A DNA stretch of 64,000 nt from Mycolicibacterium tokaiense (GTDB taxonomy: Bacteria > Actinomycetota > Actinomycetes > Mycobacteriales > Mycobacteriaceae): positions 5,828,001-5,892,000 of the forward strand of contig NZ_AP022600.1 of the NCBI RefSeq assembly GCF_010725885.1, in the 5' to 3' direction. The notes below the pieces were generated by a model, which searched no databases, was not told the DNA's origin, and saw only the letters and a program-made list of their open reading frames with translations. Shown in pieces: positions 5,117 to 13,377 of the stretch (positions are counted from its first letter, which is position 1; each line of letters opens with the position of its first letter). The position numbers and the translations under genes were made by a program.

Positions 5117-5680
5117 ATGGCCGAATCGCGCCGACGCGCAGACGCCGTGCAGAACCGCGACCGGATCCTCGAGGTCGCACGTGAGCAGTTGCTGAGCTCA
5201 GATGATGTGCGGCTCAACGCCATCGCCAAGGCCGCCGGGGTCGGCCAAGGCACGCTGTACCGGCATTTCCCCACCCGCGAACACCTGCTGGCCGAGGTGT
5301 ACCGCGCCGATGTCGAGGACCTCACCGCGGCTGCGCCCGCACTGCTGACGGAGTTCGAGCCGGCGGAGGCGCTGTCACGCTGGTTCGACCGGGTGGCCGA
5401 GTACGCGCGGGTCAAGCGGGGCGTGTTCTCCGCCGTCGAGGTCGCGGTATGGAGGGATCTGTCGGCGCACAGCCTGGGCCCCATCGGCGACGCGGTGAGC
5501 GTCCTGCTCGCCGCGGGGCGCGACGCCGGGCAGCTCAGGGACGATGTCGACGCCCGGGACGTGATCCTGCTGATCGGTTATCTCACCCGCCTGGAGGACG
5601 CCGAGTGGGAGCAACGGGCCCAACACCTGCTGCAGGTGATTCTCGACGGGCTGCGTGTGAGACAGTCACACAATGACTGA
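5117..5680 (+). CDS. TetR/AcrR family transcriptional regulator
   Basis: 187 residues. The N-terminal helix-turn-helix spans about residues 14-60, with RDRILEVAREQL leading into KAAGVGQGTLYRHFPTREHLL, the standard TetR recognition-helix segment. The C-terminal ligand-binding domain is all-helical. The ATG at 5117 has GGGAGGGA about 8 bases upstream. The gene is divergent from the SDR at 4280-5017 and overlaps the start of the next SDR by 8 bases, so it probably regulates both dehydrogenases together with itself through the two palindromes upstream. The inducer is unknown. Confidence 0.93.
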   Translation: MAESRRRADAVQNRDRILEVAREQLLSSDDVRLNAIAKAAGVGQGTLYRHFPTREHLLAEVYRADVEDLTAAAPALLTEFEPAEALSRWFDRVAEYARVKRGVFSAVEVAVWRDLSAHSLGPIGDAVSVLLAAGRDAGQLRDDVDARDVILLIGYLTRLEDAEWEQRAQHLLQVILDGLRVRQSHND

Positions 5681-6413
5681 CCTGACGGGCAAAGTGGCCC
5701 TGGTGACCGGCGCCTCTTCCGGACTCGGCGCCGCCGTTGCACAACTGTTCGCGGCGCGGGGCGCCTCGGTGTACGGGATCTCCCGCGACGCCGAGCGCAT
5801 GGCCGCGGTCTTCGACGACGTGCCCGGCGGGGTCTACGAATCCGTCGACATCATCTCGTCGCAGGCGTGCGCACAGGCGGTGGACAACTGCGTCGAGAAG
5901 TTCGGCCGCCTCGATGTTCTGGTGAACGTGGCGGGGTTCCACACCATGCGGCACACCCGCGACGTCAGCGACGAGGACTGGGCCTACGATCTGGCCGTCA
6001 ACCTCAACGGGCCGTTCTTCCTGTGCCGCGCGGCCTTGCCGCATCTGCTGGAATCGGCAGGCAACATCGTCAACGTCTCGTCCATCGCGGGTGTCGAGGG
6101 CGAGGTCTACTCGGCGGGGTACTGCGCAGCCAAGCACGGTCTGGTCGGGATGACCCGCGCGCTGGCCATCGAATTCACCGCCGACAAGCTGCGGGTGAAC
6201 GCCGTCTGCCCCGGCGGCATGGTCACCCCGCAGGCCACCGAGTTCGCCGCACCCGAGAACGCGGACTGGAACCTGATCCTGCGCATCGCCTCGCCGCGCG
6301 GACTGATGGATGTCGCCGACGTCGCCAAGACCATCGCGTTTCTGGCCAGCGACGACGCCTCGGCGGTGCACGGTGCGGTCTACGTGGTGGATAACGGGAA
6401 AACGGCGGGCTGA
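5673..6413 (+). CDS. Short-chain dehydrogenase/reductase (SDR)
   Basis: 246-residue classical SDR. The Rossmann motif TGASSGLG is near residue 12, NVAG replaces the usual NNAG (VNVAGFHTM), the catalytic serine sits in VNVSSIAG, and Tyr-x3-Lys is YCAAK. The C-terminus carries DVAKTIAFLASDDAS and ends VVDNGKTAG, as in FabG-like SDRs. The ATG overlaps the end of the TetR gene, so the two are probably co-transcribed and translationally coupled. The substrate is not deducible. Confidence 0.92.
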   Translation: MTDLTGKVALVTGASSGLGAAVAQLFAARGASVYGISRDAERMAAVFDDVPGGVYESVDIISSQACAQAVDNCVEKFGRLDVLVNVAGFHTMRHTRDVSDEDWAYDLAVNLNGPFFLCRAALPHLLESAGNIVNVSSIAGVEGEVYSAGYCAAKHGLVGMTRALAIEFTADKLRVNAVCPGGMVTPQATEFAAPENADWNLILRIASPRGLMDVADVAKTIAFLASDDASAVHGAVYVVDNGKTAG

Positions 6414-6431
6414 GCTGGCATCATCAACGCC

Positions 6432-6848
6432 GTGCACATGCAAGAGGGCCACCCGGGAACCGAAGACGGCAGCGCAGTCGCCGGTTCCAAGGACACAGTC
6501 CACAGCATCGCGGTGGCCGGCTCGGTGGCCACCGTCAGCAGCACTGCGGTCGCCGGGTCGGCGGCCACTGCCGTCAGTGCGGGCGTCACCGCGTCGGTGG
6601 GCACCGTCGCCAGCACCGCGGTAGCCGGCTCGTCCGGCACGGCCGGCAGCGTGGCCGTGGCCGCGAGCGTCCTGACCGTTCTCTCGGTCGCCGTCGCGGC
6701 CTGCGTCGCGGTCCTCGGATGTGTGGCCTGCACGCGGTGCATCGCCTGCGTCCTGTGCCTGAAGTGCACCGACTGCATCGGGTGCATCGCGTGCTCCAAT
6801 TGCACCGGCCTGCGGTTCGCCATCGGCAAAACCGACGTGCACGCCTAG
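6432..6848 (+). CDS. Cysteine-ladder repeat protein, predicted beta-solenoid
   Basis: 138 residues (GTG at 6432; an in-frame ATG at 6438 is equally possible). I do not recognise a named family. The protein is built on an exact 12-residue period: an AVAGS-like unit begins at residues 15, 27, 39, 51, 63, 75 and 87, with Thr at 22, 34, 46, 58, 70 and 82 and Ser at 25, 37, 49, 61, 73 and 85. In the C-terminal third the same inward-facing columns switch to cysteine: ten Cys at strict three-residue spacing from 97 to 124, plus Cys91. The tail is TGLRFAIGKTDVHA. No signal peptide is seen. This looks like a small beta-solenoid whose last coils form a disulfide or metal-binding ladder. Third-position GC is high, supporting coding. 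Its stop overlaps the convergent DUF4185 stop within CTAG. Confidence 0.7.
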   Translation: MHMQEGHPGTEDGSAVAGSKDTVHSIAVAGSVATVSSTAVAGSAATAVSAGVTASVGTVASTAVAGSSGTAGSVAVAASVLTVLSVAVAACVAVLGCVACTRCIACVLCLKCTDCIGCIACSNCTGLRFAIGKTDVHA

Positions 6849-8161
6849 TTCAGCGTCGTGCGCATCAGCATCACGCTGTAGGTGTCCCACACCGAGAGCG
6901 TGAAGTACAGGTCCGACCCACTGGACCACGGATGGATATACGGGGCGTAGATCCCGCCCGGCACCTGCGCGGTCGTCACGATCGTCTTCGCCTGACTCCA
7001 CGGGCCTTCCGGTTTGTCGGCAGTCCGCATCACCACATTGTTGAGCGTGTTGGTGTAGAGCATCACGAACTTCTTCAGGTGCTCGTTGTAAGCCACCGAC
7101 ATCTCACTGCCCGGCGCCCACACCACCTGCAGGGCCAGATACGGCGTGTTCCTGATCCAACCGAACGGGGTGAAGTACTCGTACGCCGAGTTGTCGGCCA
7201 CCTTGTTCTCGGGAACCCGTGACAGGAAAGGCATTCCGCCGCGACCCGCGCCGGTGCCGTAGGCGTAGACGAAGCCGCCCGAACGAACGTACGCGGCCAT
7301 CTGGAAGTTCTGGAAACCCCAGACGAACGGAACACCGGGGACGGTGTTGAACCAGCTGGGCCGGATTCCGCTGCGCGGCACCGTCCATGTCTCACCGTTG
7401 TCGTCAGAGACGGCCACCGCCGAGAAGTTGGTGGACCACTGCCCCGGATTGCCCCACTGACTCACCGACATGAAGTTGACGTACTGACGATTGCCCACCG
7501 AGATCCCCGCTGTGGGAATCACCGTCACCTCGGTGGCGGAGACGCCCAAGCTGGCGATCACCTGCCGCGAGAAGTCAGGCCGCTGCTGGGCCACCGGCGA
7601 GCCCGCGTAGATGTCCCCGAACTTCGGATCGGGAATCCGCATGCCGTCGGCCAGATTTCGGTCGGCGCTGCGGTACAGGACGTTCTTGCGCCATTCCTGG
7701 TCCTGCACAGCGCAGTTGCCGAACGTGTCACCGAAGGCGATGAGGACCTGCGGATCGGTGGCCGAACCGTTGTCCCACGTGATGCCCAGGTCGGTCCCGG
7801 AGATTCCGAACCGCTTGTAGGAATCCGTCTCTGGTCCGGTGAGCCACTGCACCCGGGTTGCGGTGGCCGCTGCGGGCGCGGCGGCGGCACGCGCGGTGGT
7901 CTCGGGCGCGACGGCGCTGTCGGCCTGCGCGGGGGTGAGGTTGTTCGGATTGGCCACCGCTCCGGGTTTGCGTCCGATGGGTACATGCAGAACCGGCAAC
8001 TTCGGCAACGCCGAGGGAGCCAGGCCGCGCGTGGACGCACTCGGCGGCGGCACCGAACACGGATCGGCCGCCGCAGGCGCCACCACCACGGCGGGAATGG
8101 CCAGCGCTGCCACCAATGCGGACGCGGCTGTCATCGACACGAGTCGCGTGGTCGGAGTCAT
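6845..8161 (-). CDS. Secreted DUF4185 protein, candidate GH183 endo-D-arabinanase
   Basis: 438 residues. The ATG at 8161 has GGAAGG just upstream; a longer open frame to 8308 lacks a plausible start. A Sec signal peptide covers about residues 1-33 (hydrophobic core ALVAALAIPAVVV, cleavage near AAA-DP). The mature protein has a Pro/Ala-rich segment, then the DUF4185 domain from about residue 125 (ISGTDLGITWDNG, VLIAFGDTFG) to the C-terminus (YAPYIHPWS, DLYFTLSVWD). From memory, DUF4185 was assigned to family GH183, endo-D-arabinanases acting on mycobacterial arabinan, which makes cell-wall arabinogalactan or lipoarabinomannan the likely substrate. The protein at 9307-11202 is a paralogue with the same domain order. 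Confidence 0.85.
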   Translation of the reverse strand: MTPTTRLVSMTAASALVAALAIPAVVVAPAAADPCSVPPPSASTRGLAPSALPKLPVLHVPIGRKPGAVANPNNLTPAQADSAVAPETTARAAAAPAAATATRVQWLTGPETDSYKRFGISGTDLGITWDNGSATDPQVLIAFGDTFGNCAVQDQEWRKNVLYRSADRNLADGMRIPDPKFGDIYAGSPVAQQRPDFSRQVIASLGVSATEVTVIPTAGISVGNRQYVNFMSVSQWGNPGQWSTNFSAVAVSDDNGETWTVPRSGIRPSWFNTVPGVPFVWGFQNFQMAAYVRSGGFVYAYGTGAGRGGMPFLSRVPENKVADNSAYEYFTPFGWIRNTPYLALQVVWAPGSEMSVAYNEHLKKFVMLYTNTLNNVVMRTADKPEGPWSQAKTIVTTAQVPGGIYAPYIHPWSSGSDLYFTLSVWDTYSVMLMRTTLN

Positions 8162-8326
8162 GGGGCCTTCCGGGCACGAATCACAGCCCACCACAGGGCT
8201 TTTGGGTTGTCGAAGTGGGCCATGACGCCGGCCCCGACAGACGGCATCTCCAGTTACAGTAGTGACCGATGTGGCAAAAGTGTCAGCAGCAACGCACCTG
8301 ACACCCACTCGTGACGGTGCCGTGAC

Positions 8327-9306: not shown

Positions 9307-11202
9307 ATGGGTGCGACCAAAAACGCGGCAACACACATCGGCCGCATCGGTGGCCTCGCCGTGGCCCTCGGCGTCGGCGCAGCAATTGCCAGCGGAGCGG
9401 GCGCCGCCTGGGCAGACAGCACCGACAGCGCCCCCTCGCAGTCCCAGACCTCGGATACCAAGACCGAGTCGAAAACCGAGTCCAAGACCGCATCGAAGGC
9501 GGATTCTTCTGACGGCGACAGTTCGACGGAGAAGAACAGTTCGACGAAGAAGAACACCTCGGCGAAGGACGACACCGACGACAAGGACTCCGAGAGCGAC
9601 ACCAAGACCTCCACGAAGTCCGAGCGCTCGAGCAAAGCCGAGAAAAAGTCCTCCTCTCGCTACGAACGGCCCGGCGAAGCCGACTCGGAGTCCTCGCCAG
9701 AGCCGGCCTCTGACACCTCCGAGGAGTCGGAGACCACCGATCCGAGCGACGACTCAGAGGACCGTCCGACCACCGCAGTCGTCACCACCGTCGCCGCGTC
9801 GCAGAGCCCGTCGGCGGAAACCGAAGCCGCCGAGACCCCACAGGAGCCCGCGAGCTCTCCGGTGACCCCAGCGCTGACGCACATGCTGACCTGGATGCGC
9901 AAGGAAACCGCACGCCATTCCACTGTCACACCCTCGGCGGCGAACACCGTCCAGACGGCCGCCGTGGTGGTGGACCCGCTGCCCAGCCGGTTGCCGTCCA
10001 CGCCGCTGGGCTGGGTCACCGGATCCGGAACACGCTGGCTCGACGGCAAACCGGTCAACGCGACGCAGAACACCTCCACCGAATTCGGCATCGGCAGCAC
10101 CGATCTCGGCATCATGTGGGACGGCGGCACCATCAACGGTGAGCGTTTCGTCCACGTCGCCTTCGGTGATTCGTTCCGCGGTCCGCGCATGACCGGCGAA
10201 TGGCTCAACAACGCCCTGCTCATCAGCTATGACCGCGACCTGCAGTCGGGGCTGGAGCTGGCCGATACCGGCCGGGTGCTCGGGCAGTTCATCGACCGTT
10301 CCCGTGGCCAGCTCGGACTGTTCAGCTCCGAGGTCACCGTCATCCCCACCGCCGGCATCCAGATCGACGGCACGCAGTACGTGAACTACATGTCGGTGCG
10401 CTCCTGGGACACTCCGGGCCGCTGGACCACCAACTACTCGGCGATCACCCAGTTCTATCCGGGCTCCGACGGTGGCGACTGGCGAATCGTTCCGTCCACC
10501 ATCCGCTCGGCAGGCTGGCTGCGCTCGTCGACCCCGTACCGCGCCGGTGACCAGAACTTCCAGCAGATGGCCTACGTCCTGCAGCCGGAAGACCAAGTGG
10601 CCGAAGGGGATCCGCGCTACCTGTATGCCTTCGGCACACCCTCGGGCCGCGCCGGGTCGGCCTACCTGTCCCGGGTCGCCGAGGGCGACGTCACGGACTT
10701 GTCCAAGTACGACTACTGGGACGGCAACAAGTGGGTCCGCGGCAATGCCGCCGTGGCGAAACCGGTGATCGGCAGCAACCGTTCGTCGGGTCTGTTCGGG
10801 TTTGTCGTCGATTGGGCCAACGACCCCAACGTGTTCGGCGGCTACCTGGGCGGGTTGTTCGGCCCCAAGACCGGCGGCAACGTCAGCGAGATGTCGGTGC
10901 AGTACAACGAGTACCTGGACAAGTACGTGGTGCTCTACGGCGACGGCAATAACAACATCCAGATGCGCGTGGCCGACACCCCGGAAGCGGCCTGGTCGGC
11001 GCCCGTTCAGCTGGCCAGTTCGGCGGCCTACCCGGGTCTGTACGCGCCCATGATCCACCCGTGGTCGGGTACCGGCCTGCTGGAGGACAGCAGCGGTGAC
11101 AGCGACTACAACAATCTGTACTGGAACATGTCCATCTGGGGTGACTACAACGTCGTGCTGATGCAGACCGACCTCAGCCCTCTGCGCCCCGTCGAGGTCT
11201 GA
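9307..11202 (+). CDS. Secreted DUF4185 protein with long Ser/Thr/Lys/Glu linker
   Basis: 631 residues. The signal region covers about residues 1-36, with a GRIGGLAVALGVGAA core of a kind I recall from many secreted proteins of fast-growing mycobacteria. A roughly 150-residue low-complexity linker rich in Ser, Thr, Lys, Asp and Glu follows, then the DUF4185 domain from about residue 225 (IGSTDLGIMWDGG, VHVAFGDSFRG) to the end. This is a paralogue of the 6845-8161 product but longer. If the GH183 assignment of DUF4185 holds, it is a cell-wall arabinan hydrolase, with the linker spanning or binding the envelope. AAGGGG precedes the ATG. The Ag85-like gene follows on the same strand. Confidence 0.87.
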   Translation: MGATKNAATHIGRIGGLAVALGVGAAIASGAGAAWADSTDSAPSQSQTSDTKTESKTESKTASKADSSDGDSSTEKNSSTKKNTSAKDDTDDKDSESDTKTSTKSERSSKAEKKSSSRYERPGEADSESSPEPASDTSEESETTDPSDDSEDRPTTAVVTTVAASQSPSAETEAAETPQEPASSPVTPALTHMLTWMRKETARHSTVTPSAANTVQTAAVVVDPLPSRLPSTPLGWVTGSGTRWLDGKPVNATQNTSTEFGIGSTDLGIMWDGGTINGERFVHVAFGDSFRGPRMTGEWLNNALLISYDRDLQSGLELADTGRVLGQFIDRSRGQLGLFSSEVTVIPTAGIQIDGTQYVNYMSVRSWDTPGRWTTNYSAITQFYPGSDGGDWRIVPSTIRSAGWLRSSTPYRAGDQNFQQMAYVLQPEDQVAEGDPRYLYAFGTPSGRAGSAYLSRVAEGDVTDLSKYDYWDGNKWVRGNAAVAKPVIGSNRSSGLFGFVVDWANDPNVFGGYLGGLFGPKTGGNVSEMSVQYNEYLDKYVVLYGDGNNNIQMRVADTPEAAWSAPVQLASSAAYPGLYAPMIHPWSGTGLLEDSSGDSDYNNLYWNMSIWGDYNVVLMQTDLSPLRPVEV

Positions 11203-11288: not shown

Positions 11289-12395
<1,107 letters not shown>

Positions 12396-12396
12396 C

Positions 12397-13236
12397 TCAC
12401 AACACGGGGCGACCGCCGGTCACCGCGACCCTGGCGCCGGAGATATAACTGCCTTCGTCGGACGCCAGCAGCACGTACACCGGAGCCAGCTCGGCGGGTT
12501 GACCTGCCCGGCCCAGAGGGGTGTCGTCACCGAAGGACGCCACCTTCGCAGGAGGCATCGTCGCCGGGATCAGCGGTGTCCAGACCGGACCGGGTGCCAC
12601 ACTGTTGACTCGAATCCCCCTCTCCCCCAACATCTGTGCCAGGCTGGCCGAGAAGTTCGCGATGGCCGCCTTGGTGGCCGCGTAGGGAGCCAGCTGCGGT
12701 GAGGGCGAGTCGGAGTTCACCGAGGAGCTGCCGATCACGGAAGCACCGGCGGACATGTGCGGCAGCGCAGCCTTCACGAGGTAGAAGTACGCGCCGACAT
12801 TGAGCCGGAACGTGTGCTCAAATTCCTCGTCGCTGATCTCCTCGAGCGAATCGTGGCTCATCTGGTAGGCGGCGTTGCTCACCAGGATGTCGATGCCACC
12901 AAATTCTGCTGCGGCGCGGTCGATGACGGCCCGGCAATGGGCGGGGTCGGCCAGATCACCGGGCATCAGGACACAGCGCTGCCCCGCGTCCTGCACCAGG
13001 GCCGCCACCTCGGCGGCGTCCTCGTCCTCGTCGAGGTAGGAGATCAGCACGTCGGCACCCTCGCGGGCATACGCGATGGCCACCGCCCGCCCGATGCCGC
13101 TGTCGCCGCCGGTGATGACGGCACGTTTGCCCTGCAGCCGGCCGGAGCCCCGATAGCTGTGCTCACCGCAGTCGGGCACCGGGTCCATCGCCGACTGGAC
13201 GCCCGGCACCTGCTGTTGTTGCTCGGGGAAACCCAT
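12397..13236 (-). CDS. SDR, YhdF/general-stress type
   Basis: 279-residue SDR with the N-terminal extension of the YhdF/glucose-dehydrogenase-like stress subfamily (QVPGVQSAMDPVPDCGEHSY before the Rossmann fold). Motifs: TGGDSGIG, SNAAYQM, the catalytic serine in GSSSVNS, and Tyr-x3-Lys as YAATK; the C-terminus is YISGARVAVTGG. The ATG at 13236 has AAAGG upstream; a longer frame to 13302 exists without support. It is divergent from the CsbD-like gene, and both families are general-stress proteins in other Gram-positive bacteria, suggesting stress co-regulation. The substrate is unknown. Confidence 0.9.
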   Translation of the reverse strand: MGFPEQQQQVPGVQSAMDPVPDCGEHSYRGSGRLQGKRAVITGGDSGIGRAVAIAYAREGADVLISYLDEDEDAAEVAALVQDAGQRCVLMPGDLADPAHCRAVIDRAAAEFGGIDILVSNAAYQMSHDSLEEISDEEFEHTFRLNVGAYFYLVKAALPHMSAGASVIGSSSVNSDSPSPQLAPYAATKAAIANFSASLAQMLGERGIRVNSVAPGPVWTPLIPATMPPAKVASFGDDTPLGRAGQPAELAPVYVLLASDEGSYISGARVAVTGGRPVL

Positions 13237-13377
13237 GGGGAACCTTTCGTCGTGGAGTCCGTGGAGTCGCTGTGCCGCCCCGCCTACCCGCAGCATCGAC
13301 ACCGAAACGCCGCCGGCAGATCAGGGGCGTCCGTCACAGCCGGGTTTGATTCACCGCAGTCGTGGAACCAGCACCAC

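What the first reader, a model, noticed from the sequence alone, without database searches (positions are those of the whole stretch)
6432..6848. Exact 12-residue repeat protein whose last coils become a cysteine ladder
The sequence shows seven units in strict 12-residue register, with V, S, T and S columns every three residues. In the C-terminal third the same columns switch to Cys: ten Cys at exact three-residue spacing (97-124) plus Cys91. Known 12-residue-coil beta-solenoids, such as the Tenebrio antifreeze protein, use regular Cys/Thr columns, so a small beta-solenoid capped by a disulfide or metal ladder is a reasonable inference. I know no described mycobacterial system of this type. 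It lies downstream of a TetR-SDR unit with no signal peptide, so in the cytosol the Cys may bind metal or act in redox sensing.
Basis: partly seen in the sequence, partly recalled or inferred. Interest (0 to 1): 0.75.

Follow-up and report, generated by a model that had tools for sequence, protein, structure and literature searches.

The report
Bacterial repeat protein with cysteine-lined core
A small, undescribed but widespread actinobacterial protein is built from strict 12-residue repeats whose inward-facing serines and threonines give way to a regular stack of cysteines at one end, probably a tiny beta-coil rod that holds metal or redox-active sulfur.

Summary
The 138-residue frame 6432-6848 keeps one 3-residue phase from residue 16 to 124: columns S/V/S/T in six 12-residue coils, then Cys (11 in all, ten in unbroken 3-residue spacing). 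It is a real gene: 135 of 297 sampled genomes of its genus match, relatives occur in Pseudonocardia, Actinomycetospora and Williamsia, and the 40 closest listed pairs have dN/dS 0.00-0.30. In 108 distinct ladder-bearing relatives 1327 of 1330 Cys lie in the one phase. Pfam has no match.
New here: the shaft surface is almost uncharged (1.3%; Ala/Gly/Val), the Cys head is polar, odd Cys counts are common (against full disulfide pairing), and 39 of 95 non-redundant loci show a leaderless-type promoter.
Best explanation: a cytosolic apolar rod with a thiolate-cored head that binds a soft metal or senses redox state. The fold is likely; the function is inference.

The parts
6432..6848 (+). whole gene, 138 codons and stop, GTG start; two-zone repeat protein
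   Evidence: relatives; purifying selection in close pairs
6416..6424 (+). extended -10-like element TGGCATCAT, 7 nt before GTG 6432: leaderless-type promoter candidate
   Evidence: such a motif at an in-frame start in 39 of 95 non-redundant loci; codon-shuffle control mean 1.5, largest 6 (200 shuffles); motif only, no RNA data
6477..6701 (+). shaft, residues 16-90: 12-residue coils, inward phase V/S/T/S, outward Ala/Gly/Val
6702..6806 (+). cysteine head, residues 91-125: the same phase becomes Cys (11 Cys), with R102 and D114 outward
6807..6845 (+). C-terminal cap, residues 126-138, consensus GLRNAVGxRxVHA
   Evidence: G126, R128 and G132 100%, L127 97%, R134 94% (Thr in the window) of 77 relatives
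5673..6413 (+). SDR oxidoreductase directly upstream, a recurrent neighbour of the family
   Evidence: same SDR adjacent in 36 of 124 loci
5117..5680 (+). TetR-family regulator upstream of the SDR; neighbour
6845..8308 (-). DUF4185 gene, convergent, overlapping the gene's end by 4 nt; neighbour only
   Evidence: DUF4185 near in 5 of 124 loci, the window's own included

Best explanation
The gene makes a small rod: a 12-residue-per-coil beta-solenoid of about nine coils. In the shaft the inward phase is Ser/Val/Ser/Thr and the outside is almost purely Ala/Gly/Val, so the shaft is expected to pack against another apolar body (other copies of itself, or a membrane). In the last three coils the same inward positions are Cys and the outside turns partly polar and charged, closed by a conserved GLR...G.R cap. 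In the reducing cytosol these 11-12 stacked thiols are most likely free, and bind a soft metal such as Cu(I) or Zn as a thiolate cluster, or act as a redox-sensitive thiol store. Shown: gene, register, phase-exact Cys, apolar shaft surface, purifying selection. Predicted: solenoid fold. Inferred: Cys inward, reduced state, metal or redox role, packing.
Confidence: 0.4

Rival explanations
1. Membrane or assembly rod: the function lies in the apolar shaft. Six to eight coils (about 29-38 A at a recalled 4.8 A per coil) with an uncharged surface insert into a lipid layer or stack into fibres, and the Cys head is only a stabilising plug or an anchor.
For: 80-residue charge-free run in the window protein, equalled or exceeded in 1 of 377 other ORFs of the genome; shaft outward charge 1.3%; 95 of 109 proteins have 6-8 coils before the ladder by a rough count; some protein-database hits have the shaft without the ladder.
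Against: No signal peptide or clear insertion signal by eye; outward Ala/Gly is only moderately hydrophobic; no known natural protein of this type (recalled); in the 77 aligned relatives the Cys columns are among the most strictly kept.
Confidence: 0.2
2. Disulfide-stabilised small solenoid, as in Tenebrio antifreeze protein: the ladder is a covalent staple and the shaft binds ice, a surface or a partner.
For: Fold resemblance of the predicted shaft to 1ezg and 1l1i.
Against: Odd Cys counts in 58 of 108 distinct proteins; no export signal by eye; all four inward columns are Cys in the head, whereas Tenebrio AFP has two (recalled), so two crossing disulfides per coil would crowd (inference); outward Thr only 1.7% on the shaft.
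Confidence: 0.1
3. Cysteine-responsive regulatory ORF: translation of the Cys-codon tract senses Cys supply and controls a neighbouring gene, as reported for leaderless polycysteine ORFs of mycobacteria.
For: Leaderless-type promoter motif in 39 of 95 loci; polycysteine leaderless ORFs that attenuate operons are described (Canestrari 2020, seen only as cited in PMC9031893; Cys-rich uORFs in PMC4633059, passages read). 32 of 81 loci do have a co-directional nearest downstream gene within 300 nt.
Against: The nearest downstream gene is on the opposite strand in 43 of 81 loci, in 32 of them within 60 nt, the window included; the non-Cys codons and the cap are kept too; the reported ORFs are short.
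Confidence: 0.07
4. Purely structural repeat protein without metal or redox function, for example a scaffold for the neighbouring oxidoreductase (SDR or succinate dehydrogenase).
For: The same SDR adjacent in 36 of 124 loci on either side, sdhA/sdhB upstream in 18 of 124; some starts overlap the SDR stop, e.g. L032, L037, L092, L116.
Against: 63 of 124 loci have none of the labelled neighbours, so no single partner is kept.
Confidence: 0.15

Closest known systems
Tenebrio molitor antifreeze protein (PDB 1ezg, 1l1i)
   Different: 8% identity in the alignment; extracellular, disulfide-bonded, outward Thr (recalled), while this has no export signal by eye, an Ala/Gly/Val outside, Ser/Val/Thr inside, and a second zone in which all four inward columns are Cys
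Phage cysteine-ladder proteins (PHROG 15341, function unknown)
   Same: Cys at exact 3-residue spacing for many coils; 77 of 77 members of alignment A2 match the profile, best E 8.7e-9
   Different: a different N-terminal domain, several different C-terminal domains, mostly polar residues between the Cys, no S/V/S/T shaft in those read; Cys composition alone could drive the match
Bacterial copper storage proteins (Csp1, Csp3) and mycobacterial metallothionein MymT
   Same: bacterial proteins that hold Cu(I), MymT through many Cys in a solvent-shielded core (PMC7558416, passages read); functional analogy only
   Different: Csp is a four-helix bundle (recalled); no Pfam or above-cut-off NCBIfam match here
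Leaderless polycysteine ORFs of mycobacteria
   Same: leaderless Cys-rich ORFs in the same kind of bacteria (PMC4633059, PMC9031893, passages read)
   Different: those are short regulatory ORFs before operons; this is a protein of 107-192 residues by my start picks, often followed by a convergent gene

Membership tests
Tenebrio-type 12-residue beta-solenoid (as a fold) | 12-residue register with one residue type kept at every third position | tested here: met
   sequence register in 77 relatives
Tenebrio-type 12-residue beta-solenoid (as a fold) | the three-dimensional solenoid itself | tested here: inconclusive
Tenebrio-type antifreeze protein | sequence homology to the insect proteins | tested here: inconclusive
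   profile search of PDB sequences lists no antifreeze protein up to E 1; 8% identity in the fold alignment
Tenebrio-type antifreeze protein | outward TxT ice-binding array (recalled) | tested here: not met
   outward shaft residues are Ala/Gly/Val, Thr 1.7%, if the S/V/S/T phase is inward
Tenebrio-type antifreeze protein | disulfide in each coil, secreted | not testable with these tools
   odd Cys counts in 58 of 108 and no signal peptide by eye speak against it
PHROG 15341 phage cysteine-ladder proteins | Cys ladder at 3-residue spacing | tested here: met
   77 of 77
PHROG 15341 phage cysteine-ladder proteins | N-terminal domain before the ladder (profile positions 1 to about 35) | tested here: not met
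   the window match covers profile positions 37-74 only
copper storage protein or metallothionein | match to a known family model | tested here: not met
   0 Pfam families at E 10; 3 NCBIfam families far under their cut-offs, none of them such a protein
copper storage protein or metallothionein | binds Cu(I) through Cys | not testable with these tools
   needs purified protein
Cys-responsive leaderless attenuator ORF | leaderless start | tested here: inconclusive
   promoter motif only, 39 of 95 loci, window included
Cys-responsive leaderless attenuator ORF | co-directional gene kept downstream | tested here: not met
   43 of 81 loci have a convergent nearest downstream gene

The most novel reading that the evidence does not exclude
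A membrane-embedded or self-assembling beta-solenoid: an uncharged 6-8 coil shaft with hydroxyl groups inside and Ala/Gly/Val outside spans or coats an apolar layer, and carries at its end a core of 11-12 stacked thiols that holds a linear metal-thiolate cluster. That would be a beta-solenoid metalloprotein of a kind that I know no description of.
Probability: 0.13. Interest if true: 0.9.

Novelty: new variant of a known kind. Interest (0 to 1): 0.6.

Why it matters
It is a conserved family in nearly half of the sampled genomes of its genus (135 of 297), with no Pfam family and no description found in the open-licence papers searched. If the core is a metal-thiolate stack, it would be a new architecture for metal or thiol storage, unlike Csp bundles and metallothioneins. 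The one register that runs from a hydroxyl core into a thiol core makes a clean system for asking what fixes the interior of the smallest beta-solenoids. It also gives a natural test case for AF2's bias towards solenoids.

Tried and rejected
Spurious ORF: rejected by relatives in 135 of 297 genus genomes and by dN/dS in close pairs. Told against this: the median ratio over the 2349 pairs with pS between 0.03 and 0.55 is 0.40, but these include many distant, near-saturated pairs. Three of the genome hits (G142, G189, G298) carry one stop inside, and four metagenome proteins that I read (P0032, P0041, P0053, P0056) look frame-shifted; I mended none.

Freely jumping gene: the labelled context changes only 8 times on the tree of 108 rows (least possible 4, shuffled mean 48.9), so it is mostly inherited within clades and sits in several places across them. 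The tree has few columns and many weak forks, and 'other' lumps unlike neighbours, so the changes are a lower bound.

DUF4185 partnership: not kept (5 of 124 loci). Homology with phage ladders: not decided, as Cys composition could explain the profile match. A viral scan with the family alignment gave 1 relative among 171 stretches (L125, E 4e-6).

Foldseek against PDB gave no significant match for either model. The viral structure library gave one at E 9.9e-4, a Mimiviridae protein of 138 residues. Paper searches that listed no description of this family: (open-licence PMC only; listings seen). Whether Mycobacterium tuberculosis has the gene was not tested by name.

Selection to bear in mind: loci were found with Cys-containing patterns and kept by a rule of at least five Cys in phase; alignment A2 holds the window and 76 of 90 non-redundant relatives; one search used 95 of 122 upstream regions.

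Full report
OBSERVATION. The frame at 6432-6848 (+) encodes 138 residues from GTG. One 3-residue phase runs unbroken from V16 to C124. It reads S/V/S/T per 12-residue coil for six coils, then Cys at 91, 97, 100, 103, 106, 109, 112, 115, 118, 121 and 124, with V at 94. Ten Cys in a row at spacing 3 do not arise by chance: at most 5 in 20,000 shuffles of the same residues, and at most 3 in 377 other ORFs picked from 464 kb of the same genome; a 7-Cys DNA ladder pattern matches only here in the window (4 overlapping matches, none in 100 shuffles).

IT IS A REAL, CONSERVED GENE. Relatives (own genome counted): 25 of 61 genomes in the first sample, 135 of 297 in a genus sample, 119 of 275 among the good-quality ones, one match in most of them. 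In a scan of a collection of 84,980 species genomes, 212 of 462 candidate stretches encode relatives; the 80 kept are Mycobacterium/Mycolicibacterium, Pseudonocardia, Actinomycetospora, Williamsia and unnamed actinobacteria. In a phylum sample 25 of 396 genomes match, of which 8 (own included) are strong (E under 1e-20) and 17 short or weak. A frame with shaft and ladder is open in loci L001-L124 by my pattern; the viral L125 fails it. The 40 closest listed pairs have dN/dS of 0.00-0.30. Starts overlapping the SDR stop in L032, L037, L092 and L116 also speak for translation. Told against: 26 of 61 protein-database hits have fewer than five Cys in a row in phase; several are fragments or look frame-shifted, others may be shaft-only relatives.

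ANATOMY. In 77 aligned relatives the inward columns are nearly invariant: S37 and T58 100%; S31, S43, T46, S49, S61 98%; C100, C106, C109, C112, C115, C118, C121 100%; column 94 is Cys in 79%. Ser and Cys swap in columns 79 (S90/C9), 85 (S57/C28) and 91 (C90/S9). In 108 distinct proteins, all chosen for having a ladder, 1327 of 1330 Cys are in the phase. The outside of the shaft is Ala 44.7, Gly 23.2, Val 14.9%, with 1.3% charged; the outside of the Cys head is 15.7% charged, with K/R at 102 and D at 114 each kept in about 90%. The cap GLR...G.R is kept (G126, R128 and G132 100%, L127 97%, R134 94%; the window has Thr at 134). The charged residues and the Ser/Cys swaps place the Cys, and by the unbroken register the S/V/S/T, on the inside (inference). 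So the shaft is apolar outside and hydroxyl-lined inside. The window protein has an 80-residue stretch without D, E, K or R; 1 of 377 other ORFs equals or exceeds that. By a rough count 95 of 109 proteins have six to eight coils before the ladder, a narrow range for tandem repeats.

EXPRESSION AND SURROUNDINGS. In 39 of 95 non-redundant loci (of 122 upstream regions) an extended -10-like element ends 6 or 7 nt before an in-frame ATG/GTG; the pattern allowed 4-8. The codon-shuffle control gives mean 1.5, largest 6, and the base-shuffle control mean 0.6, largest 3. In the window it is TGGCATCAT at 6416-6424 before GTG 6432. Mycobacterial leaderless genes have a -10 with the start codon at the transcript start (PMC4633059, passages read). 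The Sdh-linked loci in that list lack the motif. Of 124 loci, 22 have the same SDR downstream, 14 have it upstream (the window among them), 18 lie behind sdhA/sdhB, 7 behind an MBL-fold gene, and 63 elsewhere; on the tree of 108 rows these labels need 8 changes. The nearest downstream gene is convergent in 43 of 81 loci and co-directional in 37. So the SDR link is recurrent but not required, and the DUF4185 neighbour (5 of 124) is not kept.

RELATED LADDERS. Among the frames are phage proteins with a roughly 35-residue N-terminal domain, a Cys ladder and various C-terminal domains. Eight that I scanned all match PHROG 15341, as do 77 of 77 members of A2; for the window the match lies in the ladder (residues 89-126). 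Ladders of this kind thus occur more widely; whether they share ancestry with this family is undecided.

MECHANISM. Most likely the protein is an apolar solenoid rod whose last three coils form a shielded stack of 11-12 thiols. Odd Cys counts in 58 of 108 proteins, four Cys per coil and the lack of an export signal by eye argue for thiols rather than disulfides. Shielded thiols in a bacterial cytosol have precedents in Cu(I) binding (Csp, MymT in PMC7558416, passages read) and in redox chemistry. That step is inference. Rivals are a membrane or fibre rod, a disulfide staple, a Cys-supply sensor ORF, and a plain scaffold; the sensor ORF is weakened by the convergent neighbours.

VERDICT. A real family without a description that I could find; a new variant of the smallest beta-solenoids with a core that switches from hydroxyl to thiol. 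The function is unproven. Interest 0.6.

Noticed in passing
L126-L245 (viral contigs): Phage proteins with very long Cys ladders (dozens of Cys at 3-residue spacing, e.g. L164, L179, L144), some joined to different C-terminal domains; PHROG 15341 in the eight scanned, function unknown.
   Followed up: partly
L050, L054, L055, L059 and others: In one clade (18 of 124 loci) the gene sits behind succinate dehydrogenase genes sdhA/sdhB.
   Followed up: partly
P0032, P0041, P0053, P0056: Some metagenome relatives look frame-shifted within the repeats; sequencing error or decay not decided.
   Followed up: no
P0008, P0031, P0035, P0036: Database relatives with the 12-residue shaft repeats but no Cys ladder; shaft-only relatives or damaged copies, not decided.
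   Followed up: no
window 6845-8308 and 9307-11202: Two DUF4185 proteins within 5 kb, on opposite strands.
   Followed up: no
L008, L015, L083, L087, L103, L114: One clade has a hydrophobic N-terminus (e.g. MLIKALLAPLS) in place of the polar one.
   Followed up: no
P0007, P0049: Two relatives with a likely N-terminal membrane helix (by eye) before the same repeats; P0049 is from a Dormiibacterota metagenome genome.
   Followed up: no
L284, about 12382-13255: An ORF of the same genome with a 119-residue charge-free run; not identified.
   Followed up: no
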